Below are positions 3,575 through 41,832 of a DNA stretch of 56,100 nucleotides, in pieces. The stretch covers positions 1-56,100 of IMG/VR virus record IMGVR_UViG_3300032397_000015. One strand, 5' to 3'. The notes beneath the pieces were generated by a model. That model worked only from the letters and a program-made list of their open reading frames with translations, did no database searches and had not been told where the DNA came from. Source of the stretch: a virus. Made by a program: the position numbers and the translations under genes. The stretch's first letter is position 1. Each line of letters begins with the position of its first letter.

Positions 3575-4458
3575 CACTCGGCCTCGGGCGGCTTGGGTAG
3601 CTCCGGAGTACCAACCTGCCCCTGGAGGTCGGCCAGTGAGATGTGATTGGACTTGGAGATCTGAACCGTGAACAGCCCGTTGAAGTCGTTCGGGATCGAC
3701 GTCTCCACGACCTTCTTGGGAACGTGGGCGGCCAACGCCACCGCTGCCTTGGAGGCCATCTCGCCCCAGCGAAAGGCGTCTGCGGCGGCCGGAATGGGCT
3801 GCTTCATGGCCAGGTCATACTGTTCAATAGACGTGTTCATCAACCGCCTGAGCACGGCGTCTGGCTCCAGGGCATACTTCATGCCCAGGATGCACTGGAC
3901 TCCCTCGAGGGTCGGATTCTCGAACCCAAGCGCCAGATAGTGACGCTCATCCCGTTCCATCGTGTCGATCAGCGCCTCCCAGCTGCCGGCCGGCATCGGG
4001 CGCGCATCCCAGAAGATGTTGCGGTATGTCTCGATGGCGTCAGGGGTGACGTCCATGTCGAAGTGGGGGGTGAGGCTGTCAGAGATTTCCGTGGGGGTGG
4101 CCTTGGAGAACAGGAACAGGCCAATCCGGATCCTGGCCTGCCGGTTAGCAAAGATCCGCGTCGCTACGTCCAGCTCCGGCGAGACCGCACGGCAACCAAA
4201 CTCCGGCTGAATCTCCCATAGCGAACGGAAGCCCTCGCGTTCCGCCCAATCAAGGACGCCGACAGTCGTCGCGAGCTCGTCATCGTCTGAATCTAGATGA
4301 CGAACGACAGCGTACGGCGCCACCTTCCTGAAGTCGGACCTGGTATCGGTGAGCCATAGCCCGCCAACGGGCGGCAGCCCGTAGCGCTTCAGCGTTTGGT
4401 TGACGTCAACCTTGCGCGAAACCAGGAACCTAAGAAATCGCTCGTAGGGGTAACGCAC
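3574..4458 (-). CDS. Hypothetical protein upstream of terL
   Basis: 294 residues from a GTG start; the stop overlaps the start of terL by one base, so the two are translationally coupled. It looks like a soluble, largely helical protein (DLDVATRIFANRQARIR, PDAIETYRNIFWDARPMP, EALIDTMERDERHYLALG), ending in a Pro-rich tail. Small terminase subunits often occupy this position, but the N-terminal helix-turn-helix expected for one is not clear. The family is unknown to me; a packaging role is inferred from position only. Confidence 0.65.
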   Translation of the reverse strand: MRYPYERFLRFLVSRKVDVNQTLKRYGLPPVGGLWLTDTRSDFRKVAPYAVVRHLDSDDDELATTVGVLDWAEREGFRSLWEIQPEFGCRAVSPELDVATRIFANRQARIRIGLFLFSKATPTEISDSLTPHFDMDVTPDAIETYRNIFWDARPMPAGSWEALIDTMERDERHYLALGFENPTLEGVQCILGMKYALEPDAVLRRLMNTSIEQYDLAMKQPIPAAADAFRWGEMASKAAVALAAHVPKKVVETSIPNDFNGLFTVQISKSNHISLADLQGQVGTPELPKPPEAE

Positions 4459-4464
4459 ACGTCT

Positions 4465-6747
4465 TCATCGAACGAACCCGTAGGGGCTCGCCGCCGGGAG
4501 GAGACGACCGCCGACATGCGACCGGGACGACTGCTTCACGGCAGACGTCTTCTCTTGGGTTTTGCTGAGCATCTGGAGTCGCTCCAGACCCGACAAGATC
4601 TTCTGGATGTGGGCCATCGCCCCGCGCACGTTCTCCTCCGGAATGTCCTCCATGCCCAAGCGCGCCGCCAGGAGCAGCTTGGCCAGCATCTGGCTCACCT
4701 CCTCCAGCATCGGCTTGGCCGACGAGAAGCGGGTGATGTTCTCGTTGTTCACGAACCCGAGCGAGAGCACGGCATCGACCGCCTGCGCATCGTCGATCGA
4801 CGCCGCACACTTCAGCAGGTCGACGATTGGGGACCGAACGGAGTCGATGAACGCCTTGATCTTGGGCGAGGCGGTCTTGATCTCCCTGGCAACCTTGGGG
4901 AAGCGCAGGTGGTGAACCTCGAGGCGGATGTGATCCTTGGCCTTGTTGAGGACCTCGGCCACCTTCTCCGAGCCAAGGCCCCAGTATCCCAGCAGGAACT
5001 CGGCCTCATGGCGTTGCAGGCTGTTGAAGTCGAAGGACACCTTGGCCATCGGCCTGGCGTTGGCGTTCGGGGTGCCGGGGGTGATCGGCATCGGCGTCTC
5101 GGCCTTGGTATCCATTGCAGGGGCCTTGGCAGTCACGGGAGGGGCAAGCGGCTTGATCTCCATCGTGTTGCTGCCGGTCGGCGCGGCATACTTGGCGATC
5201 GGCCCGCCCTTGAAGATGTACCTACCATTGGCCGTCGCGACCTTGATCGGGTTCTTGTCCAACCACTCCGCCGCGATGCGCTTGAAGTCGTCGGGGCCTT
5301 CGGAGACCTGGCAGAGTCGCGGCATTCGGACGAAGAACATCTTCGCCGACACGATGTAGTTCTTGCCTGCACCCATGAGGGGACGAAGCGTCGACTTCTG
5401 CTTGTCGTCGATGGCGACGATGCCGTCGACATTTGGCGAGATGATCAGGTTGGCGATCTTCCCCTGGTAGTCGATCACGCCCAGGCTGCGCAGGTTCTTG
5501 TAGACCGTTACCGAGGTGACCTGGAAGGGGCAGGTCGCCATGACGCGATCTCCGTCTCGGTAGACGAGCGTCCCCATCTTGCCGGTGTCTGGGCGGTCGG
5601 CCTCGAGGTTCACATCGGCGTCGTCATTGAGGGCGATGCCGGCGATGCGGCCCTGCATGGAGGCCAGGGACTTTCCCAGGAAAAGCTTGATGGGCTTGGT
5701 GGCGCCGTCGAAGTCGACGACGTTGGTGATCACCCAGCCCTTGGCAAGCACCCCGTCAGCATCCTTGACGCCGTAGCGTCCGAACTTGTCGACGGTGCGG
5801 ACGATGCGGTCGTCCTGCAACGGATCGAACACCCAAGGGTTCAGGTGCTTGCCCAGGCTGATGTCGCCGGCCGGTCCGTCGACCTCCTTGCCATAGACGG
5901 TCTCGGGCGGGATGACGGTGAAGTGGCCGAACTGGTCGATGCTGTTGAGCGGGTCCTGCTCGTAGTCCCAGAGCTCGGACCTGCGCAGGTTAAGGAAGTT
6001 CCTCAGTCCTTGGCGGTCCGTTGAGATCATGACCGGGTCATAGACTTCGTCGGGAGCCGAGAAGAGCCGGTACTGGTTGGGTCCGTCCTTCTTGACGGTG
6101 AAGACCTCGGACGCGCGCTCCTTGTTGGAGTCGTCCTGTTCGGTCTGCTTGGGCGCCTCTGCGGCGATCTTGTGCAGCAGCCGATCAGTACCGCGGCGAT
6201 GGTAGGCGCTCAACAGAGCCGGCGTGGCGGCAATGGCCGTCTTGAACATGCGCAGATCTTCGGCGCCCAGGGTGCCGCTGATTGCCTTCAGCATGGAATG
6301 AGGCGAGGAGTACGAGTACTTGCCGCCCAGTGGAGGATTGCGGACCTCTGCAAAGCTGTCATCGGCCATGCTCGGCGGGGCGCCAACGGGCGCCAGGCCG
6401 GTGCCCATGCTGGACTGGTAGAACACCTTGGCCAGGTTGTCGTCAGTCAGCGGGTAGACCTTGTTCTCCTTGAAGAACAGATCGATCGGCGCCAGGTTCC
6501 AGGACTTGACGATGGCCGGGATGCCGATCGAATTGCCGCTCTCGTCAGACGCGATGGCGGAACCGATGGCGTACCCCTTCTCGTCGTCGACCTTTTGGAA
6601 GGTCACGACGACGTTGAGGCCCATATCTTTCGGCAGCTTCTCGGCCACCAGGGCGGCGATCTCCTGCTGCCACTCCCGGACGTTGTCCGACAGCTTCTTG
6701 TACTGCACCCGACGAAACTGCGGGTCTTCCGAAAAGAGGTTCTCCAT
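4465..6747 (-). CDS. Large hypothetical protein, likely virion-associated
   Basis: 760 residues; the ATG at 6747 is preceded by AGGAGAAC. I do not recognise the family. The N-terminal 60 residues look like a mixed domain (REWQQEIAALVAEKLPKD). The middle is beta-rich with repeated short strands (GKYSYSSPHSML, RLFSAPDEVYDP, GKSLASMQGRIAGIALN). There is a Pro/Thr-rich linker near residues 555-590, then a helical C-terminal region (AEFLLGYWGLGSEKVAEVLN, EEVSQMLAKLLLAARLGME). It lies between the spike-like gene and the terminase genes in one tight operon, so a structural or injected role is plausible. No enzymatic motif was seen. Confidence 0.6.
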   Translation of the reverse strand: MENLFSEDPQFRRVQYKKLSDNVREWQQEIAALVAEKLPKDMGLNVVVTFQKVDDEKGYAIGSAIASDESGNSIGIPAIVKSWNLAPIDLFFKENKVYPLTDDNLAKVFYQSSMGTGLAPVGAPPSMADDSFAEVRNPPLGGKYSYSSPHSMLKAISGTLGAEDLRMFKTAIAATPALLSAYHRRGTDRLLHKIAAEAPKQTEQDDSNKERASEVFTVKKDGPNQYRLFSAPDEVYDPVMISTDRQGLRNFLNLRRSELWDYEQDPLNSIDQFGHFTVIPPETVYGKEVDGPAGDISLGKHLNPWVFDPLQDDRIVRTVDKFGRYGVKDADGVLAKGWVITNVVDFDGATKPIKLFLGKSLASMQGRIAGIALNDDADVNLEADRPDTGKMGTLVYRDGDRVMATCPFQVTSVTVYKNLRSLGVIDYQGKIANLIISPNVDGIVAIDDKQKSTLRPLMGAGKNYIVSAKMFFVRMPRLCQVSEGPDDFKRIAAEWLDKNPIKVATANGRYIFKGGPIAKYAAPTGSNTMEIKPLAPPVTAKAPAMDTKAETPMPITPGTPNANARPMAKVSFDFNSLQRHEAEFLLGYWGLGSEKVAEVLNKAKDHIRLEVHHLRFPKVAREIKTASPKIKAFIDSVRSPIVDLLKCAASIDDAQAVDAVLSLGFVNNENITRFSSAKPMLEEVSQMLAKLLLAARLGMEDIPEENVRGAMAHIQKILSGLERLQMLSKTQEKTSAVKQSSRSHVGGRLLPAASPYGFVR

Positions 6748-6756
6748 GGCGTTCTC

Positions 6757-7209
6757 CTAGACGAGCGGTATCGGCGGACCCGGTGCGAAGGGCTGCACTT
6801 TAACAGCCCCCAGTGTAAGCCCAGCGATAACCTGAGCCAATCCGTTTGCTTGCTGTTGTGGGGTGGCGTCTGGCGGCTGCGGGCTGTTCACGATCGGCGA
6901 CAGCGGCAGGAACAGGGACACGGCTCCGGCCTGGGCGGGTACCGGCAGCCCCAGCCAGAACGTGTTCAGCGCCGATAGGAATAGCGACGGACCAGCCCCG
7001 GAAAGGTTTGGATTGAACGCAGTCTCCAGACCCGAGGCGAGCGCAGATTGCTTTGCGATCGCCGCCGGAATTCCACCCGCCGCGACGTACGAGACATACG
7101 CCGCTGCCCATGCCTTGGCCGATGCGCTGGTCGTGACCGGTGATGTCTCTGGAATGAACATCGGCAGGAACCCCGCGGTCAGGACGGATGTGACAACGGA
7201 TACTGGCAT
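6757..7209 (-). CDS. Hypothetical protein following the spike gene
   Basis: 150 residues; the ATG at 7209 overlaps the stop of the upstream spike-like gene (TGATG), which sets this start in preference to a TTG one codon earlier. The protein is Ala/Pro/Ser rich with moderately hydrophobic stretches (VVTSVLTAGFLPMFIP, AAAYVSYVAAGGIPAAIAK, GAVSLFLPLSPIV) and a C-terminal proline cluster. It may be a tail-completion or baseplate accessory protein given its neighbour, but no family is recognised. Confidence 0.6.
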   Translation of the reverse strand: MPVSVVTSVLTAGFLPMFIPETSPVTTSASAKAWAAAYVSYVAAGGIPAAIAKQSALASGLETAFNPNLSGAGPSLFLSALNTFWLGLPVPAQAGAVSLFLPLSPIVNSPQPPDATPQQQANGLAQVIAGLTLGAVKVQPFAPGPPIPLV

Positions 7210-8180
7210 CAAAGTTTAGGAGGGGTCTTGGAGAAGAACGCAAAAGTCGAGAGGATCTTATCAGATAGCTCCGCCTTCAGCTGTGCCAGATCGACCGGAG
7301 TCGGTGGCAGCGGAGGCGTAGACGGCCCCCATGCCGTCCCGACCTTCAGTTGCGTGATGATGTCGATCAGCTTGGAGAATGCTTCTACCAGCGCGTTGCC
7401 CAGCACTGCCGGCTCGTTGGCTGAAGACCCACCCCACTGGTACTTCGGCCCCTCGCCGACCCATGACCCGTCGGCAAAGTAAGTCTCCCTGGTCTTGATC
7501 TCTGCGACTTCCTTGCTTGATACGACCTTGACCGACGCGAGCTCCAGCTTGCGCCTGGCTGCCGAGTCCAGGTTTCCGTGAGTGATCTTGAACCTGTCGT
7601 AGGTCGACCCAACCTGGTGCAAGAACGATTCTTCATGGACGGTCTCTGGCTCGGTGCTTCCTGGCTTCTCGCGTCCACGCTTGGCCAGATACCCTTCCGC
7701 GTTTTGGCGAAAGTTAGCCGATCGGAACGACGCCTGGTTGTTGAGCGGGTTGAGCACTAGCCCGACGCCCGGACCGCCCTCCATGACCATGGCGCCCCCG
7801 CGCTTGAGCAGCAGACTCGCACCCCCGGCCGTCTTGTAGACCTTGTCGCCGGCGGTATCGCTGTCGTCTGGCGCACCGACCACTGGCGGCAGATCGGACT
7901 CGTCGTCTACCGACGGCGAGCGAGCGAAGCCAATGATGAAACACTGTGCCCCGTTCGTGGTCATTATGGCCACGCAGGTTGAGCCCGGCCTGGGCCGCGT
8001 GTGTTCGCCACCGCCGCCAGAGTCAGCATCGGGGCTGAGTACGTGGGCGTCGTTAACGACAATCCCGCAGGTCGACGAGAACCTGTAGATCCCCGCCCTC
8101 TTTGGGTTTTCTTCGCCAACAACCCCGAACAGGATCTGCCCGCGTGGCTGCCCCGCACCCTTCCAGAATTGGTTGTTCAC
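7209..8180 (-). CDS. Baseplate spike-like protein with OB-fold N-terminus
   Basis: 323 residues from a GTG start. Residues about 12-110 alternate short beta strands and end with ...CVAIMTTNGAQCFIIGFARSP, the layout seen in gp5/gpV-type spike OB domains just before the trimeric needle. Residues 110-165 are Gly/Ala rich and could make intertwined beta-helical turns (GDKVYKTAGGASLLLKRGGA). A helical C-terminus ends FAFFSKTPPKL. No lysozyme or peptidase active site is visible. It is the first gene of the terminase block, directly divergent from the SSB island. The spike assignment rests on pattern only; a general baseplate protein is the main alternative. Confidence 0.5.
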   Translation of the reverse strand: MNNQFWKGAGQPRGQILFGVVGEENPKRAGIYRFSSTCGIVVNDAHVLSPDADSGGGGEHTRPRPGSTCVAIMTTNGAQCFIIGFARSPSVDDESDLPPVVGAPDDSDTAGDKVYKTAGGASLLLKRGGAMVMEGGPGVGLVLNPLNNQASFRSANFRQNAEGYLAKRGREKPGSTEPETVHEESFLHQVGSTYDRFKITHGNLDSAARRKLELASVKVVSSKEVAEIKTRETYFADGSWVGEGPKYQWGGSSANEPAVLGNALVEAFSKLIDIITQLKVGTAWGPSTPPLPPTPVDLAQLKAELSDKILSTFAFFSKTPPKL

Positions 8181-9127: not shown

Positions 9128-9150
9128 ATGGCGCAACGCGCCATTTTCTT
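9128..9150 (+). terminator. Rho-independent terminator of the ssb island
   Basis: ATGGCGC, loop AAC, GCGCCAT forms a 7-bp stem at 9128-9144, followed by TTTCTT. It lies 20 bases past the stop of the second island gene and overlaps the stop of the convergent minus gene. It has a T tract only in the plus direction. Confidence 0.7.
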
Positions 9151-10234
9151 AGCCAACCTTGGCGCCGCGGTAACCGCGCTGCGGATTGTTCAAGCTCTTG
9201 ATCGTGTCCGAAAAGTAAGCTGACTTGCTCGGCGGCTTGGCTTTCGCCGTCTCCTTGGCCCTGGCCGATGGATTTGTATTGGGGCGAGTCGTCTTCGGTT
9301 TTGGGGCCGACATGCCCGTGTGCCAAGCCGCGCTGGCGGATGCGCGCAGCAGCCCGGGAGATTGCACCTCCTTGCCCGCAGTGGCAGCGGTCTTCTCGGC
9401 AGCCGCATCTCCGCCGCGCAAGGCGGCCAGCACCTTCTGAGCGATGAGAGTCGCCAGCATGGGGGTTGCTGCCGCCAGGGCATAGGTGCCGTAGGCGGGA
9501 AGCAGTTCTTTCGCGGTCTGCGCAACGCCGGGGCCGAATTTGCGAGCGCCGACCAGCGCGTTCTTCGTCGCCCTGGCCTCCTCTAGCAACTGCGGCACGG
9601 CTGTCGCCCCAACCAGCAGTGGGGCGTGGTCGCGCGCAAAGCCACGAGCATCGGTCTCGTCGTCCTTCGCCGCCGTGATGGCGTTCAACATTAAGCCAGC
9701 TCGCGCTGGCCCGCCGACCAACCTGACGGCCGCCCCGAAGTTCTGCCAGATATTGCGCAGCAGGGTGCTGCCGAGGATCGGCGAGGCGTGGCCGATCTCA
9801 TGCATCATCACCGGGACCGATCCCAGCCTGGTGACAATCTGCTCCTCGGCCAATCCCAGCGGAAGACCAAGTCTGTCTGACAGCTTCTTGGCCTCGGCCG
9901 GGTCCATATTCCTGGCTACCATCGGCATCCCAGGAAAGAACATCGCATTGCCAGGAACCCCGCCGGCCATCATCGGAGTCGTTACGCCTTTGCTAGCCGC
10001 AAAGTCTGTCAAGTCCTGTACTTCTTTGCGTGTAAAGGCTGAGAGCTGCTCCAGTGGAGTTCCTGTCACCTCCGTCACCGGACTCATGGCATTCCACCTG
10101 TCCGAGATCGCCCCTCCAAGGGCGCGCTGCCCCATCTTCCCAGCCTGCAGCGTTGCCAACATCGCCGCCACGGACGGCAGGGAGCTCCTCTGAAAGCTTG
10201 GCGCGGGTGCCGGTTTGTCGCTGTCGTCCGCCAT
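9149..10234 (-). CDS. Virion-type protein with HExxH (zincin-like) motif
   Basis: 361 residues; the ATG overlaps the RNA polymerase stop (ATGA), so it is coupled to that gene. Residues 141-150 read PVMMHEIGHA, a zinc-metallopeptidase HExxH motif. A possible third ligand lies in LLEEARATKNAL near 217-227, a spacing compatible with gluzincins. The sequences before (FFPGMPMVARNMDP) and after (hydrophobic GTYALAAATPMLATLIAQ, about 245-262) suggest membrane contact, and the C-terminus is Lys/Pro/Ser rich and basic. Possible roles include an injected protease, a maturation protease or a metal-binding structural protein. The motif is seen directly; activity is inferred. Confidence 0.65.
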   Translation of the reverse strand: MADDSDKPAPAPSFQRSSLPSVAAMLATLQAGKMGQRALGGAISDRWNAMSPVTEVTGTPLEQLSAFTRKEVQDLTDFAASKGVTTPMMAGGVPGNAMFFPGMPMVARNMDPAEAKKLSDRLGLPLGLAEEQIVTRLGSVPVMMHEIGHASPILGSTLLRNIWQNFGAAVRLVGGPARAGLMLNAITAAKDDETDARGFARDHAPLLVGATAVPQLLEEARATKNALVGARKFGPGVAQTAKELLPAYGTYALAAATPMLATLIAQKVLAALRGGDAAAEKTAATAGKEVQSPGLLRASASAAWHTGMSAPKPKTTRPNTNPSARAKETAKAKPPSKSAYFSDTIKSLNNPQRGYRGAKVG

Positions 10235-13200
10235 CAGTAAACTCCCTCAGTCTTCGACCTGCCTGTTGGATCTTCTCCGAATTCAGCCCCATAGGCAAAG
10301 CCGGGGATGGGCGAGTACCCATGCAAGTCAGACTCGGCGCCACGTGCAGCGCCCTCGACAATGGCGGACTTCAGGCGTCGATAGCCCATCTGGCTCATCC
10401 AGTCGTCGCGCATCATGGGAATCTCCTGGATGCCCTTGAGGAAGGGGCGGTGGAGGATGGGCAGCGGTCCGGTCTCGACCTCCGTGAGTCCCGTACGCTC
10501 CAACAGCTTCTTGACCCGGTCGTTGATCACGGTCCCCTTGGGGACCCCGGGCACGTCCTCCTGGAGCGTCATGCCGTGGGCGTCTTCCAGACTCTTCTTG
10601 CCGAGCTTCTTGGCGTTGTAGTCCTCGACCACAGTCCAGGGCGCCACGTCGCCGGGAAGGAAGTCGCTGCCGCCGGGGTCCAGCACTCGAGTCGTATTTC
10701 CGACCGACCGCACGACTGTTTCGATGGCGCGCCGCTTCAGGTCGACACCCTGGCTGGCATAGGCAGACTGGATCTCGTTGGAGAGGTACTCCTGAGCGGC
10801 GCGCATCCCCTTGAGGCGAGCGAGCTCATCGGGCTGAGCCAGGCCCTTGGAGATGATGTCTCCCTTGGAGATCTGACTACCGACGCGAATCCTGTCCGAG
10901 TCCCACAGGTCGTTGGGGATGTAGTGATTCTTGCCATCGATGCTGACGTCCCTGCCGGTATCGCCTACCGACGACGTGACGCTATCGACCGTGCCATCGT
11001 TTTGCGCGAGGGCGGCCTTGCCCCGCTTGATCTCCGGCATCTTAAGCAGCTTGTCGATCTTGTCGTAGCCAGAGATAACGCCGCGAGTGCCGGAGATGCC
11101 ACCGGAGTGGAAGGTGCGCATCGTCATCTGGGTCAACGGTTCGGACATCGCCTGTCCGGAGGTGGCGCCAACGTTGTCGCCAATCGACGGCGACATCCCA
11201 TGCTCGTTGATCCCGTAGCACTTGGCGCAAACCCCCTTCGGCAGCCTACAGGTGATGGGCGAGCGGACGTCCACGGTCTTGATCTTGCGATCGCGCAACG
11301 TGCTCAGCAGGCCAGATGTCACCTGGCTGCCTGCATGAGCGACGACCTCGCCCTTGTACAGGATGTCCTTGGCGAGGAAGCGGTCCTCGACGTCCGACGA
11401 ATTGATGTCGACGTCGAGCCCCTCATGCGTGCCGCAGTCGTCCTTGGCGATGACCGTCGACACAGCCGAGGCCATGATGTCCTTGTTGAACTCGCCAGGC
11501 TTGCTGGTCTGGAGCTGCTTGTCGACGGCCGTGGCGCGAGCTCCATAGAGCGTGCTCCAGTAATCGGAGAACGGCAGCCCCTCCGAGAAGGAATTCATGA
11601 TCGGGAAGGGGGAGGCGTTGCCACGATGGTCGTCGACCATGAACGGCGTGGACACCGTCTGCTTGAGCTGGGTCATGTTGCCGCGCGCACCTGACCGGAC
11701 CATCAGATTCAGATTATTGGTCTGGGCGTTCAGGCCGGACGTCACAGCGGCGTCGAGCTGCTTGCCGGCGGCACCCATGATCTGTCGCCCCTCCTCGCGC
11801 TGGGCGGGATCTGACAGGTCTAGCTTGTTAAGCGCCTTGGTCGTCTGGTCGAAGATGCCTTGCTTGCCGGGGATCACGGGCGTCAAGTCTTTCATGCTGA
11901 CCGTGAAGCCTGTGCGGTAGGTGTGCTCGTCACCGAGCTCCTTCAGCTTGTCGAGCACCTTGCCGTAGTCGCGCGGCATGGTTTCGGCTAGATCCATGGT
12001 CAGCGCGCGCAGACCCTTCTTATCCAGTTCGACATCCTTGAACTTCTCCTGCATCGAGGCCGGAAGCAGCGCCGTGATCGCACCCCGCTTGGCCGGATCC
12101 TTCGACATCAGGAATAGCCCCAGGGCAGACTCATTCTGCGGCGTCATCATGATCTGCCCGGTGCCGGGGTTGTAGAGATTGTTGGATGGCAGCATCCGCT
12201 TCGCCTCCTCGACCGCATCCGGCAGCACGGGCACATGGACCGTCATGGCGTCGCCGTCGAAGTCGGCGTTGAAGCCCTTGACCACCAACGGCGGAATCTT
12301 GATGGCCTTGCCGTCGGTGATCTGCGGCATGAATGACATGATCGAGAACTTGTGGAGAGAGGGGGCGCGATTCAGGATGATCGGACGCTCCTTCATCTCG
12401 GCGTCGAGCGCGGCCCGTGCGCTGGGAGTGCGGTCCTTGACTTCCTTGGACGCCTCCGTCGGGGATTTACCGGCGGAATTGACCAATCGTCGCGTGATGA
12501 ACGGCTGGAAGATGTTCCAGGACATCTCTTCCGGTAGGCCCACCTCGTCCAACCCGAGCTTTGGCTCGGGAATGATGGTGCCGCGCCCGACCAGGTCTTG
12601 ATTGCGCCGCAGCACGCTCTTGATGAAGAAGCCTTCTTTGGCAGCCTTGTCTCCTTTGATCTGCCGGATGATGCCTTGAGGCACCCGCGACTTGGGGTAT
12701 TTGGCGATGGGATCACCCAGCCCATAGATGGCGGCGACGCCGTCGTACAGATTCTGACGAAGGTCCGACTTCGACGACTCAGGGATGTAGTCCACCCCCT
12801 TCTGCCAAGCCAGCTCGTTGTTGACCAGGCTGACGTCACGGTAGAGCGTGTTCAGTCCTGGATTTGAGATCTGACCGTCGTCGCTTTCCACGATCTGCCG
12901 GAACTGCGGGGGGATGATCGGAATCTTGCTCTGGACGTAGGCGTCCTCGGGGCGCACCCCCGTCTTCTTCAGAGCGTGCAGGTACTTCAGCTTCTTGTTC
13001 GCTTCATCGAGCTTCGCGGCGGTCTTGGACGTCTTGGCCTTGTCCGTCCACGTCTTGATATCGGCATCAACATCGATTCGGCTGAGCATCTTCTGGAAGG
13101 CGGGGCCTCCCGTCAGCCCCTTGTCTGCCCACTCTCCGGTGGCGGGATCGACAAACAGGTCTCCCTTGACCAAGCCCTTGTACTGCGTGTCCGAGATCCC

Positions 13201-16200
13201 CGTCAGCTTCTTGATCGGATTCTCGAAGACAGGGTTGGCGATGGGTTCTGAGAGCTGGATATGACCCCAGCGGTCACCGAGCTTGCCGCCAAAGATCTCC
13301 GGATCCATCAGCCCCCCGACCTCTTCGCGCAGGTCCTTGCCGCGCACGAAGATGGGCTCCTTGATAGCCCCCGAGCTCATGTTCGTGACCTCTTTGTCGG
13401 TCATCGGGTTGATGATCATCCTGGAGCCGTTGCGCTTGGTATTCACGCCTGCGCCGTTCAGGTATGCCTCGAATTTCTTGTACGCGAAGGTAGGCTGGGG
13501 CGGTGGGGCGATCTGTCCGCTCTTGTGGCCAGCCGACAGCCAGTTCCAAAAGTTCTCATTCTGAGAGCCCTTGTATGTCGCCATCTCGCGCAGGTTTGCC
13601 CGACTGCCGTGAGACAGCATCGAGTAGAAGGACAAGAGGTCCAGCGCCTTGGCGCCATCCTCGCCGCCTCTGAGAGGAGCGCGGTTGATGTCGTACTTTC
13701 CGTCGCTGCGGGCGGAAAACTGCGAGGTGGCCTGCTTGGCCAACTTGAGAACGTACTGCGGACCTACCAGCACATCGCCCAGCGGCTCCTTGCTGTGCGC
13801 ATCGAACAAGGTCTCGGTATCGGAAATCTTGTTCTTCGCCAGCTCAGCGGTCATGTCGCGGGCGTAGTCGGCACCCGTGAAGTTGTCGACGACGTACGGC
13901 TTTCCGTTCTTCTCGGCGATCTTGGCCGCTGCGGTCTCGAGGATCTGCGACGGGTTGATGCGCGTGACGATGCCGTGCGGATTTAGGAGGATGTCGACCT
14001 TGTTCGCCGTGCCATCAGCGTTCTGCGTATAGGGCGCTTCCCCGTCGGAAATGATCTTGGTGATGATGCCCTTCGCTCCGTGCCTGTTCGTGAGCTTGTC
14101 GCCAATCTGCGCTGGCTCGTTGGTCTTTACATAGACCTTCACCTTCTTGCCAGCCTTCACGACATCGACGACCGTCCCGTCGGCATCTCCGGTCCATTCC
14201 TCCATGTGGCCACGCCGAGGGTTCGTGCTCGGGGCGATCTTTTTCATCGCCAGGTATTCGGGGTCGTACTTGTTCTCACGCGTCCCCACCCAGAGCGGGT
14301 CGCCCTTCTGTAGAACCTGGCCCTTGCGGACGATGCCGTCGTCGTCCAGCTTGTCCTGCTGCTCCGGCGTCAGCGCTCCGGGCCTCCAGGCCATGAATGC
14401 GTCCTTGGAGAACGCATCGCCTTTGTCGGCAGAGACCGAATGCTCGTGCATGTGCTCGCTGGCAAGCTTCTTGGCCGCCGCCTCGGTGATGACGATGCCG
14501 TCCTCAAAGTTGTAGCCCTTATACGGGACATAGGCCGCCCGCAGGTTGGTGCCGATGGCGAGGGTCCCGTCGCGGGTGAAGTTGGAGTCGGCCAGCACGC
14601 CGCCCTCCTTGACCACATCGCCTGCGACGACGGTTGGGTCAGAGTGCAAAAATGACTTTCCGTTCAGCGGCAGATTGTTGTAGATCGGCTGCTCGACCAC
14701 TCCATCCTTAGTCCGGACGGTAATCCTGTTTGGAGTAACCTTCTCAACCACGCCGTCGGCCAACGACCTGACCGAGAACCCCTCGCCAATCGCATCCTCG
14801 ATGGTCCCCTTGCCGACCTTGACCTGAACCAGCGGCGCTTCGCGGCTAGTCAGCGGGATGGCCTGCTCGATCATCTTCGTAGCCATCTGCGCACGCACGC
14901 CCTGCGCCGACGCCAAGAACGGGATCGTGTTGGAGGCGATGGAGAACGCCTGCTTCGCGGACGAGAGCACTGCATCGACGTCGGACGCCTTCACCGACTG
15001 CATCTCGCCCTTGATCATGACCTTGACCTTGTCGGCGATGGGCTTGCCATTTCGATACTGGTCGGGGAACGCCACCACCATGTCTCGCATGTCAGACGGG
15101 CTGGCCCAGCTCTGAGTTCCGTCCTTCGGGTTGGTCACCCTGGTCTGCAGGTCCTCTTTGTCCTTCGACGTCCCCATCGGCAGGTTGAGCACGATGCCGA
15201 TGTTGCTGGAGTCGGGCGTGTGAATCGGGTCAATGAACCCCATGTGCGACGGATGAAGCGAGTGCTCCTCATCGCGAACTGCTCGCTCCGACTGAACCCC
15301 GCCCTCGCCAAGGATGGTGACCTTGGAGCTCCCGTTGATCATGTTGATCGGGTTGGTCTGGTCCGTCGTGTTGGCCAACGACGACTGGGTGAAGAAGCTG
15401 GTGAAGATGGAGCTCAGTTCGTTAGAGCTGACCAGCTTGGAGATGTCGGTAGGCGGAGACTTGCGATTGTTCAGGCGGTAGAAGATCTTCTTGCGCAGCT
15501 CGGACAGCTTCGGTGCGAGCTCGCCGGATTCCTGGATAAGGCGTTCGCCGATCAGGTCGGCGGGCCCCAAGACCTTCTTGTACTCAAGTGCCTCGCGGTC
15601 ATCGATCCCTCGCTGCCCCCTGGTCAGCTTGAGCAATTCCGATGACCCGTCGAGCAGCGCCTCTGGCCCTACCCTGTCGTAGCCCCTGCCGAGCGTGGCC
15701 TTGGTGACCTCAGGACGAATCTCTCCGTCTGATTCAAAGAACCCGTTGATGGCCTCGGCGGCCGCAGCAGGTGAGTCGTGCTTGGAGCGAGTAAAGTACT
15801 CGCCCGCCTTGAGCACGGCCTGCGTGGACTTCTTCTCGTTCAGCGCCTTGTTGACCTCGAGCACATCCACGCCCCACGCCTTGGACATTGCGGAATCAGA
15901 GACTCCGATCCTGGAAAGGATGGGATAGAGCGGCACCCCCGTACTATCCTTTCCACCCTTCATCAGCTTGAAGACGCCGCTGGCGTCGTCATATTTGATG
16001 TCGAAGGGGCGTCCGGCGATGTTGATCTCGGTCTTCTTCTCGCCGTTTTTCTTCTCGGTGACGTAGATGCCCGGCTTGCGGCGCAGCTGGTTCTGGACCT
16101 GGTAGTGCTTACCGTCGACAATGAAGCTACCCAGGTCGGTGGTCTTGGGCAGCGTGGCGATCTTCAGCTTGTTCGTCGACGACAGTACCTCTCCAGTCTT

Positions 16201-16434
16201 CCGGTCGACCAGGTCCATCGCCACGTAGACTGGGACGCCCCAGGTCCTGTCCTTACGGACTGCCTCGCGCTGCGACTCCCAGTCGGCTGAGTCTTTGTTG
16301 TCGTCTACCCATACGTTTTTGACCACGATCTTCCGGCCAGTGCCGGTGGCCTGGATGTCCAGGGCCTTCGAAAAGGACGAGACCACGTCCTTTTTGATCT
16401 TCTCGAACTGGCTGGCATGGTCAAACGGGTTCAT
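10234..16434 (-). CDS. Fused beta/beta-prime multi-subunit-type RNA polymerase
   Basis: 2066 residues without interruption. The beta half (about 1-965) shows DQTNP (358-362), ILGEGGVQSERA (374-385), GYNFEDGIVITE (640-651), GDKLTNRHGAKGI (778-790) and ILLNPHGIVTRINPSQILET (815-834). The beta-prime half (about 1003-2066) shows GHIQLSEPIANPVF (1057-1070) and the catalytic NADFDGD with Asp1391, 1393 and 1395. It also has a bridge helix around 1623-1660, a zinc site Cys1667/1729/1736/1739 and a trigger loop QMTMRTFHSGG with Arg1773 and His1776. The N-terminal beta-prime zinc ribbon is absent. At 2066 residues it is roughly a quarter shorter than the two Escherichia coli subunits together. No alpha or omega gene is seen. 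The gene starts a minus-strand operon and is coupled to the HExxH gene. It should make RNA with its own promoter choice, probably with the sigma factor at 40954-41832. Confidence 0.97.
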   Translation of the reverse strand: MNPFDHASQFEKIKKDVVSSFSKALDIQATGTGRKIVVKNVWVDDNKDSADWESQREAVRKDRTWGVPVYVAMDLVDRKTGEVLSSTNKLKIATLPKTTDLGSFIVDGKHYQVQNQLRRKPGIYVTEKKNGEKKTEINIAGRPFDIKYDDASGVFKLMKGGKDSTGVPLYPILSRIGVSDSAMSKAWGVDVLEVNKALNEKKSTQAVLKAGEYFTRSKHDSPAAAAEAINGFFESDGEIRPEVTKATLGRGYDRVGPEALLDGSSELLKLTRGQRGIDDREALEYKKVLGPADLIGERLIQESGELAPKLSELRKKIFYRLNNRKSPPTDISKLVSSNELSSIFTSFFTQSSLANTTDQTNPINMINGSSKVTILGEGGVQSERAVRDEEHSLHPSHMGFIDPIHTPDSSNIGIVLNLPMGTSKDKEDLQTRVTNPKDGTQSWASPSDMRDMVVAFPDQYRNGKPIADKVKVMIKGEMQSVKASDVDAVLSSAKQAFSIASNTIPFLASAQGVRAQMATKMIEQAIPLTSREAPLVQVKVGKGTIEDAIGEGFSVRSLADGVVEKVTPNRITVRTKDGVVEQPIYNNLPLNGKSFLHSDPTVVAGDVVKEGGVLADSNFTRDGTLAIGTNLRAAYVPYKGYNFEDGIVITEAAAKKLASEHMHEHSVSADKGDAFSKDAFMAWRPGALTPEQQDKLDDDGIVRKGQVLQKGDPLWVGTRENKYDPEYLAMKKIAPSTNPRRGHMEEWTGDADGTVVDVVKAGKKVKVYVKTNEPAQIGDKLTNRHGAKGIITKIISDGEAPYTQNADGTANKVDILLNPHGIVTRINPSQILETAAAKIAEKNGKPYVVDNFTGADYARDMTAELAKNKISDTETLFDAHSKEPLGDVLVGPQYVLKLAKQATSQFSARSDGKYDINRAPLRGGEDGAKALDLLSFYSMLSHGSRANLREMATYKGSQNENFWNWLSAGHKSGQIAPPPQPTFAYKKFEAYLNGAGVNTKRNGSRMIINPMTDKEVTNMSSGAIKEPIFVRGKDLREEVGGLMDPEIFGGKLGDRWGHIQLSEPIANPVFENPIKKLTGISDTQYKGLVKGDLFVDPATGEWADKGLTGGPAFQKMLSRIDVDADIKTWTDKAKTSKTAAKLDEANKKLKYLHALKKTGVRPEDAYVQSKIPIIPPQFRQIVESDDGQISNPGLNTLYRDVSLVNNELAWQKGVDYIPESSKSDLRQNLYDGVAAIYGLGDPIAKYPKSRVPQGIIRQIKGDKAAKEGFFIKSVLRRNQDLVGRGTIIPEPKLGLDEVGLPEEMSWNIFQPFITRRLVNSAGKSPTEASKEVKDRTPSARAALDAEMKERPIILNRAPSLHKFSIMSFMPQITDGKAIKIPPLVVKGFNADFDGDAMTVHVPVLPDAVEEAKRMLPSNNLYNPGTGQIMMTPQNESALGLFLMSKDPAKRGAITALLPASMQEKFKDVELDKKGLRALTMDLAETMPRDYGKVLDKLKELGDEHTYRTGFTVSMKDLTPVIPGKQGIFDQTTKALNKLDLSDPAQREEGRQIMGAAGKQLDAAVTSGLNAQTNNLNLMVRSGARGNMTQLKQTVSTPFMVDDHRGNASPFPIMNSFSEGLPFSDYWSTLYGARATAVDKQLQTSKPGEFNKDIMASAVSTVIAKDDCGTHEGLDVDINSSDVEDRFLAKDILYKGEVVAHAGSQVTSGLLSTLRDRKIKTVDVRSPITCRLPKGVCAKCYGINEHGMSPSIGDNVGATSGQAMSEPLTQMTMRTFHSGGISGTRGVISGYDKIDKLLKMPEIKRGKAALAQNDGTVDSVTSSVGDTGRDVSIDGKNHYIPNDLWDSDRIRVGSQISKGDIISKGLAQPDELARLKGMRAAQEYLSNEIQSAYASQGVDLKRRAIETVVRSVGNTTRVLDPGGSDFLPGDVAPWTVVEDYNAKKLGKKSLEDAHGMTLQEDVPGVPKGTVINDRVKKLLERTGLTEVETGPLPILHRPFLKGIQEIPMMRDDWMSQMGYRRLKSAIVEGAARGAESDLHGYSPIPGFAYGAEFGEDPTGRSKTEGVY

Positions 16435-18509: not shown

Positions 18510-18804
18510 TGCTGTCTCCCTTGTCGAGTTTCGGTTTCTTGATCCAGTAGTGAACCACAAGAAAGACTTCTTCGGTCGTTGTGACGGTCGCATCTTCACC
18601 GTTGCCGTCGCGGACCGTAGTCTTGCGCGTGTACTCACGGATCTGCTCAATGTAGATACCCTGGGAGGCGTCGTTGGCATTGGTGCGCAGCAGCGCGTAC
18701 TTGCCCATGTCGTCGTCGTCGAACATGTTGTAACGCCCGACGATGAACTCGCCGAGGTTCTTACCGCCTGTGGCGACCTTGACGTCACTGACCTTGGCAG
18801 CCAT
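18454..18804 (-). CDS. Hypothetical 116-residue protein between portal and holin
   Basis: The ATG at 18804 overlaps the portal stop. The protein is soluble and mixed alpha/beta (NLGEFIVGRYNMFDDDDMG, YIEQIREYTRKTTV, EEVFLVVHYWIKKP), with a charged C-terminus that overlaps the holin gene by 56 bases. There is no known motif. Translation coupling to the portal suggests a virion role; the overlap with the holin may couple lysis to late translation. Confidence 0.65.
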   Translation of the reverse strand: MAAKVSDVKVATGGKNLGEFIVGRYNMFDDDDMGKYALLRTNANDASQGIYIEQIREYTRKTTVRDGNGEDATVTTTEEVFLVVHYWIKKPKLDKGDSNADVKEARRDWAKERSVG

Positions 18805-21755
18805 TAGACAGCTCCTCCGCCGCGGCGAGGCGGCGCCATCTGGGGCGCGGGCTTGTTGCGATCTTCAGCCTGCCCCGCGGTTTCGCCAGTCTGCATCTGA
18901 GCCAGTAGTTGCTCGACCAGGCGAGCCATGTTGGGCATCTTCTGGCGAAGGTCATTCAGGACACCCTCGCGCTGGTCGGGTGGCAATTGGGCGATGCGGT
19001 TGGCCCAATTCTTAGCCACCTTGGACGCATCCATCTGCACGACCTGGCCGCCGGCCGAGGTGCCCGTCTCGCCCTCCACGTTGGCCGGCAGCTGCGCCGC
19101 GCCCTGGAGGGCGGCTTGCTGTCCCATCTGCTGATCAGCGGCCTGCTGGTCAGCGGAGGGTGCGTCCTGCGCCATCTGGGGCTGACCCTCCTGCGGCTGC
19201 GCCTGCGGCTGCTGGTCGCCCTGCTGCATCTGGCCCTGGCCCTGCTCGCCTTGGCCAGGCTGACCGCCCGACTGGCCACCGGACGCTTCGTTCATGGCCT
19301 CCTGGGCACGGGCCTGGTACTTGGCCTGGACGATAGACGCCTCGCCCTGCGCCTCGCTCTGGGCCTTCATGGTGACGGCCTGGATGCGGTTACGCTGGTC
19401 GGCTTCCTTTTCGATCATCTTGAGCTCGTCGTCGTAATCGAACCCAAGCTCGGTGAGCATCGTGTGGTCGGAGATCTTGTTGGCAGCATTGAGCTGGATG
19501 ACGATCTGCTTGCGCTGGATATCGTCCGCCATCTTGAACTCGGTGAAGCCGATTTCGATGTCGGGTAGACCCAGGTACAGCCGGATGCGATTCTTCGCCC
19601 AGTTGACGAAACGGAGCAGGAGGCGGCGGTGCATGAGGAAGTGGTTCTCCAGGGTCCGCAGGGAGACCGAGGAGCCGGACCAGGATAGGCCGCCGAACAC
19701 GAACTCCAGCGGCACGCCCATGCCGCCGGTGATCTCCTTGTTCGTGACCTCGATCTCCGGGCCGAGCAGCAAGGCGCGGCCATCGCCGCCCAGGCGCTCG
19801 AAGCCGAGTGGCACGGCCACGACCGAGATGTAGTTCGGGTCGGTGCGCCACTTCCGGATTTCGTTCTGGACGGTGCCTTGCCAGCTCGACAGGTTGACGT
19901 GCTGATAGGGGTCCTGTTGCGCGTTGGCCTGCGGAAAGATGAACTCGAGCGGCATGATCCGCTGGAGCGCAATCGCCTCCTGAGCACGACGCAGGACGTA
20001 CAGATAAAACATGCGGCCCATCGAGTGGATGATGAGCGGCTTGCCCCAGCCCATGTCCGCCTCGGCCAGGGTCGGGCGCTTGAAGTGAAAGAGGTTTTGG
20101 TCGGAGAGGGCGATGTCACGCTTCTGCTTGAGCGCCTGGAGAAAGATCTCCGGAATGTCGACCAGGATGGCCCGCTCGCCGCCCTGGATGGCCTTCTGGA
20201 TCTTGTTAGGAATCTTGTAGCGATACTTCGACCGACCGGTGATCGGGTTGTAGTGGATGTCGATGTTCTTCGGATCCCAGCGAACGAAGTTGATGCCGGA
20301 CCGATCTCTCAGCGGCTTATCAACGATCTTGGCGACGCAGCTGATGCCGCAGTCCTGGCACTTGATGTTGAAGCCGAAGTTCTGGAACTTGTACTCGACC
20401 GCGGGATCTGACAGGCGGTGCAGAGACTTGCATCCAGTGCACTGCAACCAGCGCACGAACGGCAGGTTGATCGAGATGAAGGCGTTGCCGTAGCAATTCC
20501 CGGTCAGGACGCCGTTGTCGATAGTGAAGGTGTGGGTCTCCATCTCGACGCAGCAGAACACCTCGTCGACGAGTCCGGTCTCCCTAACGTCCTTGATGTG
20601 GACATATGAGCCATACCTGGTCGGCTTATAGTTCTCTTCGAAATTGGACCGATGACGGGATAGTAGAAAGTCCTGCGGAAGCAGGTACTGCTTGAACAGC
20701 GAAAGGAAGTGCATCGCCCCTTCGTATTCGTAGACCTTCTCGCCGTACTTGAAAGACGTCGATCTCTCGTATCCGCGAACCTGGCCGGCGATCATGCCAA
20801 TGCGTGGCAACTGATCGGCCACAGCGTCCAGGGTGGCCTTGGCCTTCTGGGTTAGTACCGCACAGCCGTTGACATCAACGGATCCGTCGGCGGCCAGGAA
20901 CCCGCACAGGAATCCGTACCAATAGCTGGCTGAGTTGGCGTTTGGAGGGAGCTCTTTGTAAGCAATCGGCAGCCCGTGAACCATGACGGTGCCGTCGGCA
21001 ACCTTGATAGCCGGCGACCCATGGCCCTCGAAATACTTGAGCATCTCGAGGTCTTTTTCGCCGTAGAAGTACGCCTTCGCCTGCTTGCCATCGTTATAGA
21101 GGCAGCCGTCGCCAAACACGAAACCGTGACGGACGCCTTCGTAGAAGTCTGCGTTCTGCTCGGGACGTGGTGCGACATTGCGCAGGATTCGCTTACCGGA
21201 AAGCTCCGTCGTCGGAACCCTCACTGTCTTGCCGTTGGAGTTGGTCACCACCCATTGATGCTCAGGGGTCGCCAGGACAGTCCGCCCGTCGTTAAACTCA
21301 ACCTCCAAAAGCTTTTGCCTGCCGAATGATTTGAACTCGGCGGGGCGATAGGTGCCGCCATCCGACAGGACATCCACCGTCTGGCCGGCCAGCTCTCGGA
21401 GCTTGAAAACCCCGTTCCTGGTAGTCACCTTGGTGTCGCCGTGGAAGCAGAAGAAATCGAGGCCGATTTCGATCAGGAAGGGCTTGAGGTTGAGGGTGTC
21501 CTCCATCAACTCCTTCCACCCGTCGCGGACGTGCTTCTCCTCGGCGTTGTAGACAAAGTCGGTGACCGGGTACTCGGCCATCTTCGTGACGACCGACCCG
21601 ATCATCGGGTCCTTGTAGAAGAAGTAGGCGCACCACCGGAACAGTTCCTTGACTGTCGGCGGCATGTAGGTCTGCGCAATGTCGAAGAACGGGGACGGGT
21701 ATACCGTTCCCCGCCTCCGATCTGCACCGCCCTGACCTAGCGAGATATCGGACAT
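18804..21755 (-). CDS. Portal protein precursor interrupted by an intein
   Basis: 983 codons encode a portal of about 665 residues plus a 318-residue intein (residues 103-420). Joining the exteins gives IEIGLDFF-CYGNAFISINL, a typical portal 'x-GNAFI' strand, which supports the assignment. The C-terminal extein carries a four-Cys zinc ribbon (CTGC about 437-440, CQDC about 464-467). It also has the portal body (MPLEFIFPQANAQQ, GGMGVPLEFVFGGLSWSG, LGLPDIEIGFTEFK) and a Gln/Gly-rich tail (about 822-910). It forms the dodecameric DNA gate at the capsid vertex. The length after splicing is normal for large myoviruses. The gene heads a tight run with the holin genes. Confidence 0.93.
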   Translation of the reverse strand: MSDISLGQGGADRRRGTVYPSPFFDIAQTYMPPTVKELFRWCAYFFYKDPMIGSVVTKMAEYPVTDFVYNAEEKHVRDGWKELMEDTLNLKPFLIEIGLDFFCFHGDTKVTTRNGVFKLRELAGQTVDVLSDGGTYRPAEFKSFGRQKLLEVEFNDGRTVLATPEHQWVVTNSNGKTVRVPTTELSGKRILRNVAPRPEQNADFYEGVRHGFVFGDGCLYNDGKQAKAYFYGEKDLEMLKYFEGHGSPAIKVADGTVMVHGLPIAYKELPPNANSASYWYGFLCGFLAADGSVDVNGCAVLTQKAKATLDAVADQLPRIGMIAGQVRGYERSTSFKYGEKVYEYEGAMHFLSLFKQYLLPQDFLLSRHRSNFEENYKPTRYGSYVHIKDVRETGLVDEVFCCVEMETHTFTIDNGVLTGNCYGNAFISINLPFVRWLQCTGCKSLHRLSDPAVEYKFQNFGFNIKCQDCGISCVAKIVDKPLRDRSGINFVRWDPKNIDIHYNPITGRSKYRYKIPNKIQKAIQGGERAILVDIPEIFLQALKQKRDIALSDQNLFHFKRPTLAEADMGWGKPLIIHSMGRMFYLYVLRRAQEAIALQRIMPLEFIFPQANAQQDPYQHVNLSSWQGTVQNEIRKWRTDPNYISVVAVPLGFERLGGDGRALLLGPEIEVTNKEITGGMGVPLEFVFGGLSWSGSSVSLRTLENHFLMHRRLLLRFVNWAKNRIRLYLGLPDIEIGFTEFKMADDIQRKQIVIQLNAANKISDHTMLTELGFDYDDELKMIEKEADQRNRIQAVTMKAQSEAQGEASIVQAKYQARAQEAMNEASGGQSGGQPGQGEQGQGQMQQGDQQPQAQPQEGQPQMAQDAPSADQQAADQQMGQQAALQGAAQLPANVEGETGTSAGGQVVQMDASKVAKNWANRIAQLPPDQREGVLNDLRQKMPNMARLVEQLLAQMQTGETAGQAEDRNKPAPQMAPPRRGGGAV
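20496..21449 (-). mobile_element. Intein with LAGLIDADG-type endonuclease in the portal
   Basis: The 318-residue intein begins at Cys103 (CFHGDTKVTTRNG, block A). Block B is LATPEHQWVV with the conserved His. The endonuclease region has two LAGLIDADG-like helices, GFVFGDGCLYNDG (211-223) and GFLCGFLAADGSVD (281-294), both with an acidic residue. The C-terminal splicing blocks are VDEVFCCVEMETHTFTIDNG and VLTGN, ending at Asn420 before the +1 Cys421. All splicing residues are present, so it should excise. It lacks the usual penultimate His (Gly419 stands there), as some active inteins do. Confidence 0.92.
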
Positions 21756-40953: not shown

Positions 40954-41832
40954 CTAGCGCTCCACGTTGGACTGACGATAGTAGTAGTCGAGCTTCTTTT
41001 CGATCTGCTTCTTGAGTCCGCGGACCTTCTGCGGGGACATGTTCAGGGCCTTGCCCAGCTGCAGCGGATCTTCTATGACGGGCTTGCCGAAGCCGCTGAA
41101 CGTGTGCTCCAGGATGAGCTGCTGGTCCGGATTGAGCGATCCGTGCAGGAAGGCTGCCTGCTGCTCGACCATCGAGTTGCCGGCCAGGGTGCCCTCGTGT
41201 CCGGCGCTCTCAGCCAGGAAGTCGCTGCGCAGCTCACGGCGAAGCGTGCCGACCATCTTCGGCGTGACCGTCTTCTGACGAAGCGCGGACAGGTCGGGCA
41301 TGGAGATCAGGACGTCGTCTGCCAGCTCCGCGTCGGAGGGCGGCCGGCCGTGTATCTCGGAGAGCTCGGCTTCGCGCTGCTTGAGCGTGCCGATCAGCCA
41401 GGAGCGATCTTCCGGGATGCGCCCGATGTTCGAGTACCGCTGCATGTAGCGGTCCATCTGTCGACCCAGGCCGTAGGTGATGTGAGTCGACAGCTGGGCG
41501 CCGCGAGTCGGATCGTAGGTGTCGATCGCCTTGACGTACCGCCGCATGATCTGGCCCTTGATCGCGGCCTTCGGCAAGTTCGAGGATGCGACGTACCTGT
41601 TCGTGGCGGAGTTGATGAGTGGCTGGTGGCTGTTCAAGAGCCAGCTGAAGTCTTCGGGGTTCGGGTTGGCGCGCCAGCGCTGCCAGGACTCCATCTCCTG
41701 TTGCTTGAGGTCGTCACGCGAGATCCCCTCAGCGGCCGCCTGCTTGGTCAGCCACTCCTCGAGCTCGCGCTCTAGATCTTCCTCAACCTGTGAATCCACG
41801 GGCGTTGGCCAATTCCTCTCGGTATGCCTCAA
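40954..41832 (-). CDS. Sigma-70-family RNA polymerase sigma factor
   Basis: 292 residues in the annotated frame. Region 2 is seen at about 62-135, with the -10 recognition helix around AIDTYDPTRGAQLSTHITYG and GLGRQMDRYMQRY. Region 3 follows at about 136-190 (SNIGRIPEDRS ... GRPPSDAELADDV). Region 4 with its helix-turn-helix is at about 232-285 (LNPDQQLILEHTFSGFG, LGKALNMSPQKVRGLKKQI). It would direct RNA polymerase, presumably the phage's fused enzyme, to promoters. The start is a TTG at 41832 inside the hub gene; a GTG at 41799 is an alternative, and neither has a strong ribosome binding site. Placement among baseplate genes is unusual. Confidence 0.85.
   Translation of the reverse strand: MRHTERNWPTPVDSQVEEDLERELEEWLTKQAAAEGISRDDLKQQEMESWQRWRANPNPEDFSWLLNSHQPLINSATNRYVASSNLPKAAIKGQIMRRYVKAIDTYDPTRGAQLSTHITYGLGRQMDRYMQRYSNIGRIPEDRSWLIGTLKQREAELSEIHGRPPSDAELADDVLISMPDLSALRQKTVTPKMVGTLRRELRSDFLAESAGHEGTLAGNSMVEQQAAFLHGSLNPDQQLILEHTFSGFGKPVIEDPLQLGKALNMSPQKVRGLKKQIEKKLDYYYRQSNVER

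What the first reader, a model, noticed from the sequence alone, without database searches (positions are those of the whole stretch)
10234..16434. Single-chain fused beta/beta-prime RNA polymerase encoded by the phage
One uninterrupted 2066-codon frame carries a full set of bacterial beta motifs followed by beta-prime motifs, including NADFDGD, bridge helix and trigger loop. The enzyme is of the cellular multi-subunit class, not T7-like, yet comes as one chain and is roughly a quarter smaller than the bacterial pair. No alpha, omega or separate subunits are visible. Split subunits are known in phiKZ-type phages and single chains of a different, QDE-1-like type in crAss-like phages; a bacterial-like beta/beta-prime fusion in a phage is much less familiar to me.
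Basis: partly seen in the sequence, partly recalled or inferred. Interest (0 to 1): 0.92.

Follow-up and report, generated by a model that had tools for sequence, protein, structure and literature searches.

The report
Phage with one-chain bacterial-type RNA polymerase
This virus carries its own copy of the bacterial transcription enzyme with its two giant subunits welded end to end into one protein, a state shared by every member recovered of a large and little-studied phage lineage that probably packs the enzyme and its sigma factor into the virus particle.

Summary
Minus strand 10234-16434 is one intact 2066-codon frame holding all major modules of bacterial beta, then beta', with catalytic residues kept. 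It is not an assembly artefact: 76-86% identical relatives keep the same frame, and the junction is under strong purifying selection (dN/dS 0.05-0.10). The fusion defines a clade. All 83 related loci examined are fused across the junction (62 as one full-length frame, 13 with beta' later split after NADFDGD, 8 cut or incomplete). In 36 sampled members the first beta' zinc ribbon is lost. The clade is separate from bacteria, from Helicobacter-type fusions and from separate-gene phage polymerases. Twenty long genomes have one polymerase locus each, no detectable alpha, and sigma hits in 18. The gene sits in a conserved portal-RNAP-...-terminase block. A cultured member, Salmonella phage Arash, has its fused chain (annotated only "beta") as the protein with most spectra in virion proteomics, with the sigma orthologous to this window's. 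Best reading: an alpha-free, sigma-dependent, virion-packaged single-chain polymerase. Catalysis is very likely; packaging in this phage is inferred. I found no description of this fusion in the papers held. New variant of a known kind.

The parts
10234..16434 (-). Single-chain beta/beta' RNA polymerase, 2066 aa
   Evidence: one frame; Pfam, PDB sequences, relatives with the same frame
13426..16434 (-). beta part (about residues 1-1003)
   Evidence: model residues 480 to about 1005 align with bacterial beta to its C-terminus
10237..13425 (-). beta' part (about residues 1004-2066)
   Evidence: model residues about 1002-2062 align with E. coli beta' residues 16-1370
13315..13431 (-). Linkerless junction beta C-terminus to beta' N-terminus (res 1002-1040)
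   Evidence: 57-66 residues between flanking blocks, against 73-204 in concatenated bacterial pairs; dN/dS 0.05-0.10
13270..13317 (-). Slot of the beta' Zn1 ribbon, here deleted (res 1040-1055)
   Evidence: 15-29 residues against 48 in bacteria; four Zn1 Cys absent in 36/36 clade members
14068..14103 (-). beta catalytic lysine motif GDKLTNRHGAKG (res 778-789)
   Evidence: both Lys kept in all 36 clade members
12250..12270 (-). beta' NADFDGD catalytic triad (res 1389-1395)
   Evidence: three Asp in 36/36
11464..11571 (-). Bridge helix (res 1622-1657), continuous in the model
11041..11172 (-). Trigger loop and helices (res 1755-1798; TMRTFH)
11212..11439 (-). beta' Zn2 cysteines (res 1667, 1729, 1736, 1739)
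15298..15357 (-). Rifampicin-pocket region; H526->G, S531->T equivalents
40954..41832 (-). Sigma-70-family factor, 292 aa, in the tail/baseplate block
   Evidence: phrog_351 3e-11, TIGR02997 4e-11; ortholog of Arash virion sigma gp10, 8.7e-24
18804..21755 (-). Portal protein, interrupted by an intein
9149..10234 (-). 361-aa gene directly after RNAP (stop/start overlap)
7209..8180 (-). Conserved syntenic gene dn323
4465..6747 (-). Conserved syntenic gene dn790
3574..4458 (-). Conserved syntenic gene dn294
1790..3577 (-). Terminase large subunit
   Evidence: phrog_675 1e-52

Best explanation
The gene encodes a complete two-barrel RNA polymerase core as one polypeptide: beta C-terminus joined almost without linker to about residue 16 of beta'. 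Covalent joining replaces the alpha dimer as the means of bringing beta and beta' together. With a phage-encoded sigma factor (40954-41832) it forms a holoenzyme that is probably packaged in the virion, enters the host with the DNA and transcribes phage genes from phage promoters independently of host RNAP; as the only RNAP locus found in long genomes of the clade, it may also serve later in infection. Shown here: fusion, intact catalytic motifs, fold of both halves, conservation and selection, one RNAP and no detectable alpha in long relatives, structural-block location, and orthology of sigma and RNAP to proteins detected in Arash particles. Inferred: activity, alpha-free assembly, sigma-core binding, packaging and injection in this phage, early role, rifampicin resistance.
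For: Intact fused frame and motifs; confident models matching beta and beta'; purifying selection, tightest at the junction; 83/83 loci fused; clade support UFBoot 97, with two tested alternatives that break the clade rejected by AU p 0.034 and 0.012; one RNAP locus in each of 20 records, no PF01000 alpha, sigma hits in 18 of 20 by at least one of two profiles; synteny portal-RNAP-dn323-dn790-dn294-TerL, portal also in the deepest member L199; Arash virion MS: gp206 3516, gp216 1210, sigma gp10 467 spectra (PMC10585845), that is 2.3, 2.0 and 2.0 spectra per residue; the window sigma is orthologous to gp10 with conserved tail gene order.
Against: No biochemistry. Virion evidence is from a 31-33% identical relative whose beta' is split; its proteome also lists ribonucleotide reductase and RNA ligases, so carry-over of abundant cell protein is possible, as its authors note. 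Spectral counts are compressed. The window is a 56-kb fragment, so missing alpha or a second RNAP in this phage itself is untested. The deepest member L199 is unstable in the beta-only tree (fused-clade support 0.41).
Confidence: 0.7

Rival explanations
1. Active single-chain RNAP made inside the cell for middle or late genes and not functionally packaged; its presence in Arash particles is carry-over.
For: Arash virion proteome contains several enzymes unlikely to be structural (PMC10585845); a second Arash sigma, gp196, is not among the listed virion proteins; only one RNAP locus per genome, so it must serve expression in any case.
Against: Conserved placement between portal and terminase; RNAP has the most spectra of any virion protein; only one of two sigmas is listed in the virion, and that one is encoded in the tail block.
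Confidence: 0.24
2. Assembly or base-calling error joining two genes.
For: None.
Against: Same frame in independent contigs at 76-86% identity, 83/83 loci fused, junction dN/dS 0.05-0.10.
Confidence: 0.005
3. Recent capture of a host fused rpoBC of the Helicobacter or Wolbachia type.
For: Best NCBIfam hit is PRK09603, the fused beta/beta' model.
Against: Helicobacter anseris (2901 aa) groups with bacteria while all phage fusions lie across a supported branch; the phage clade lacks Zn1; no phage-type fusion among the best 80 GTDB loci.
Confidence: 0.01
4. Catalytically dead structural protein derived from RNAP.
For: Location among head genes and the high number of spectra in Arash particles.
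Against: Catalytic Asp triad and both beta Lys invariant in 36/36, trigger-loop His in 35/36; whole-enzyme fold; cognate sigma.
Confidence: 0.03

Closest known systems
Salmonella phage Arash gp206/gp216 and Vibrio phages D69, D148, D181
   Same: Same clade: beta fused to N-terminal beta', Zn1 lost, portal upstream, sigma in the tail block
   Different: beta' C-terminal third is a separate gene (a nested secondary split); Arash gp206 is annotated only as 'beta', the Vibrio chains as hypothetical
mReC Caudovirales (Weinheimer and Aylward 2020, PMC7481178)
   Same: Phage beta and beta' recognisable by cellular profiles, clade apart from bacteria
   Different: The paper speaks of beta and beta' subunits and mentions fusion only for crAssphage; reported mReC capsids were all PF07068, found in 0 of 16 fused-clade records here but in separate-gene phages. 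Membership of some of the 97 contigs cannot be checked (supplements not readable)
crAss-like phi14:2 gp66, P23-45 gp96/gp64, YonO, QDE-1
   Same: Two barrels in one chain; some are virion RNAPs
   Different: Highly divergent from cellular subunits (PMC10770324, PMC7281927, PMC7481178); here full beta and beta' architecture at 1e-100 with bacterial profiles and a sigma factor
phiKZ/AR9 vRNAP and nvRNAP
   Same: Cellular-type, alpha-free phage RNAP; a virion form exists
   Different: beta and beta' split into several chains, two enzymes per phage (PMC7598289)
Helicobacter/Wolbachia rpoBC fusion
   Same: beta-beta' order in one chain
   Different: About 2900 aa, Zn1 kept, groups with bacteria: independent fusion
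Carin-5 / GN1 / L245-type phage RNAPs
   Same: Phage beta and beta' of cellular class
   Different: Separate genes, beta' before beta, Zn1 kept; outside the fused clade

Membership tests
Two-barrel (multisubunit-class) RNA polymerase | beta and beta' modules with NADFDGD, two beta lysines, bridge helix, trigger loop | tested here: met
Two-barrel (multisubunit-class) RNA polymerase | RNA synthesis activity | not testable with these tools
   needs purified protein
Fused-RNAP phage clade (with Arash/D69) | one frame across the beta/beta' junction | tested here: met
   83/83
Fused-RNAP phage clade (with Arash/D69) | Zn1 ribbon absent | tested here: met
   36/36 absent, against 0/17 bacteria and 0/8 separate-gene phages lacking it
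Fused-RNAP phage clade (with Arash/D69) | monophyly | tested here: met
   UFBoot 97 with L199, 100 without; two alternatives breaking it rejected by AU; weak in the beta-only tree when L199 is included
mReC Caudovirales | MCP of family PF07068 | tested here: not met
   0 of 16 fused-clade records, including complete Arash and D69; the window is a fragment
mReC Caudovirales | RNAP inside the published mReC clade | not testable with these tools
   the 97 contigs' sequences are in supplements not held; an AU test cannot decide whether all phage RNAPs are one group (p 0.127)
QDE-1/crAss-type single-chain RNAP | divergent minimal two-barrel chain not recognised by cellular beta/beta' profiles | tested here: not met
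   cellular profiles match at 1e-90 to 1e-150
phiKZ/AR9-type RNAP | beta and beta' split into several polypeptides | tested here: not met
   one frame
Helicobacter-type rpoBC fusion | groups with bacterial RNAP | tested here: not met
Virion RNA polymerase (functional class) | present in virions | not testable with these tools
   for Arash shown by others (PMC10585845); for this phage only synteny
Bacterial-type holoenzyme | own sigma factor encoded | tested here: met
   binding to the core not tested
Bacterial-type holoenzyme | alpha subunit encoded | tested here: not met
   PF01000 in 0 of 20 records, including two records described as whole-phage assemblies

The most novel reading that the evidence does not exclude
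A whole bacterial-type transcription holoenzyme simplified to two polypeptides (single-chain core plus sigma) is carried in the particle and injected, so that the phage needs neither host core, alpha, nor host sigma at any stage; the linkerless fusion and loss of the Zn1 ribbon are adaptations to alpha-free assembly and to passage through the tail.
Probability: 0.4. Interest if true: 0.87.

Novelty: new variant of a known kind. Interest (0 to 1): 0.74.

Why it matters
All cellular RNAPs use an alpha-type platform to assemble beta and beta'. A natural, stable, bacterial-like single-chain core with its own sigma would be a minimal two-protein model of bacterial transcription and lets one test directly what alpha and the Zn1 ribbon are needed for. 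It also fits a recurring pattern: several known virion-delivered RNAPs (N4, crAss, P23-45) are single chains, as expected if they must be threaded into the cell and refold without partners. Cultured members exist, so the idea can be tested now, and their public annotations hide the fusion.

Tried and rejected
Frameshift or assembly artefact: rejected. Host-derived recent capture: rejected. QDE-1/crAss type: rejected by profile strength. L201 looked like a member split exactly at the junction, but the stop is an in-frame TGA aligned with a conserved Trp; read with TGA=W it is fused. L168/L169 first looked like close split relatives but lie outside the fused clade. Simple identity with mReC: not supported by the capsid family and not decidable without supplements. 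Whether all phage RNAPs share one origin: AU test cannot decide. A first alignment-based scan failed because the alignment held fragments. BFVD top hits are separate-subunit viral RNAPs, and no fused homolog appears in the rows shown. The PDB list for model 480-1490 was filled by beta chains, so the beta' half was modelled and searched separately. tRNA and Rfam scans of the window: nothing. Literature searches in the held library found no description of this fusion; subscription papers and preprints are not held.

Full report
WHAT IS THERE. The 10234-16434 frame runs on the minus strand: ATG at 16434, stop overlapping the ATG of the next gene at 10234. It encodes 2066 aa. Pfam domains of beta (Rpb2_3, Rpb2_6) and beta' (Rpb1_1, 1_2, 1_4, 1_5) follow each other without interruption, and sequence matches to solved bacterial beta' reach 1e-109. 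NCBIfam matches run from 1e-90 to 1e-154, the best being the fused beta/beta' model of Helicobacter type. The record is a 56,100-base IMG/VR viral contig with terminase, portal, baseplate wedge and helicase.

NOT AN ARTEFACT. IMG/VR holds three relatives with the same full-length frame at 86, 86 and 76% identity. dN/dS against L002 is 0.09 overall and 0.05 across residues 941-1070; against L004 it is 0.18 and 0.10. The junction is thus at least as constrained as the rest.

ANATOMY. The catalytic Asp triad, both beta lysines, the trigger-loop His and the Zn2 cysteines are kept. The stretch from the last conserved beta block to the first beta' block is 57-66 residues in the clade, against 73-204 (median 91) in bacterial pairs joined end to end; the Zn1-ribbon slot is 15-29 residues against 48. 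All four Zn1 cysteines are missing in 36 of 36 clade members and present in 17 bacteria and essentially all of 8 separate-gene phages. Rifampicin-contact positions corresponding to H526 and S531 are replaced in 35 of 36, so resistance is predicted, not shown.

FOLD. AlphaFold2 on residues 480-1490 (54 sequences) gave pLDDT 89.3, pTM 0.79 and matched bacterial beta over about 500 residues up to beta's C-terminus (Z about 33). Residues 960-2066 (53 sequences) gave pLDDT 87.6, pTM 0.82 and matched whole bacterial beta' (TM up to 0.83; Z about 33 over about 930-1000 residues), model residue about 43 (chain residue about 1002) falling on E. coli beta' residue 16. beta therefore ends and beta' begins at the same place, with practically no linker. 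I could not measure the barrel-barrel geometry because coordinates are not returned.

HOW WIDESPREAD. A profile scan of IMG/VR returned over 400 relatives; the best 80 plus three cultured phages give 83 non-duplicate loci, all open across the junction: 62 full single frames (median about 2100 aa, three of them lengthened, with intein or homing-endonuclease domains found inside), 13 with beta+beta'N in one frame and beta'C separate, 8 cut by contig ends or lacking the C part on the locus. Because that query could favour fusions, I also scanned by the bare NADFDGD DNA motif: every intact member of this lineage was again fused; one apparent exception (L201) uses TGA where relatives have Trp. That scan also turned up separate-gene phage RNAPs (beta' about 900 aa followed by beta about 1000 aa) and phiKZ-like fragments.

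PHYLOGENY. FastTree on 110 taxa and IQ-TREE LG+F+G4 on 61 taxa (UFBoot) put all bacteria together (100) and all 36 fused-clade sequences together (97; 100 without the deepest member L199); the split-beta' phages, including Arash and D69, form one nested group (100), so their split is secondary. Two alternatives that break the fused clade are rejected by AU tests (p 0.034 and 0.012), but whether all phage RNAPs form one group is not resolved (p 0.127). In beta alone the clade with L199 is weak (0.41), in beta' strong (0.99). Helicobacter's fusion falls among bacteria: independent.

GENOME CONTEXT AND MECHANISM. In most of the 83 loci the order is portal, RNAP, dn323, dn790, dn294, TerL, all on one strand; the deepest member L199 also has the portal directly upstream. 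The RNAP gene is thus part of the head/packaging block. Twenty long records each hold one beta' barrel locus, no bacterial-type alpha, and 18 of 20 show a sigma hit by at least one of two profiles. The window's sigma (40954-41832) is orthologous to Arash gp10 (8.7e-24), not gp196, and sits in the same tail-gene order as gp10. In the published Arash virion proteome gp206 has the most spectra (3516), gp216 1210, sigma gp10 467; gp196 is absent from the passages of the table that I read (PMC10585845). Per residue these are 2.3, 2.0 and 2.0, compatible with, though not proving, an equimolar holoenzyme; spectral counts saturate. The most economical mechanism is a packaged sigma-RNAP delivered with DNA. 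Covalent fusion would replace the alpha platform and guarantee 1:1 barrels after injection; that Arash-type phages later cut beta' after the barrel but never separated beta from beta' agrees with the junction being the part that matters (inference).

COMPARISON. The kind (phage two-barrel RNAP, sometimes single-chain, sometimes virion-borne) is known: crAss gp66, P23-45, YonO, phiKZ/AR9 (PMC10770324, PMC7281927, PMC7598289); fused large subunits are also known in yeast linear plasmids (PMC7281927) and Helicobacter. Those single-chain phage enzymes are divergent; this one keeps the whole bacterial architecture. The mReC study (PMC7481178) reports beta and beta' subunits in Caudovirales with PF07068 capsids; that capsid family is absent from 16 fused-clade records but present in separate-gene phages, so I do not file this under mReC, while noting that its filters would also have accepted fused chains and that L046 comes from the same metagenome as two mReC exemplars.

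VERDICT. Observation confirmed; interpretation supported and extended. New variant of a known kind.

Noticed in passing
window 18804-21755 (-): The portal gene carries an intein with a LAGLIDADG domain (about residues 103-418); the close relative L002 has an intein-free 658-aa portal.
   Followed up: partly
L024, L026, L080: Fused RNAPs lengthened to 2506-3259 aa with intein and/or homing-endonuclease domains inside.
   Followed up: partly
L201 (IMGVR_UViG_3300000172_000001): Member with in-frame TGA at conserved Trp positions: TGA probably read as Trp in this phage.
   Followed up: partly
L199 (IMGVR_UViG_3300031722_000008): Deepest fused member, 2329 aa, scoring higher to bacterial RNAP than to the window; may be closest to the ancestral fusion.
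   Followed up: partly
L006 (Vibrio phage D181): beta itself is interrupted by a homing endonuclease gene, so the enzyme is in three pieces.
   Followed up: no
L007, L294 (Salmonella phage Arash): Two sigma factors; gp10 is listed in virions and gp196 is not in the passages read. Could be an early/late pair.
   Followed up: partly
L182, L189, L193, L228, L234, L245, L168, L169: A different phage RNAP type with separate genes in reversed order (beta' before beta) and Zn1 kept.
   Followed up: partly
phage records OR844998, OR846602, OR849902, AFYI01000006 and similar: Entries labelled phage appear to contain ordinary bacterial rpoB/rpoC, probably contamination or bacterial contigs.
   Followed up: no
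PHROGs 25354 and 24349: Listed as unknown function but match this RNAP's beta' and beta parts at 1e-124 and 1e-75.
   Followed up: no
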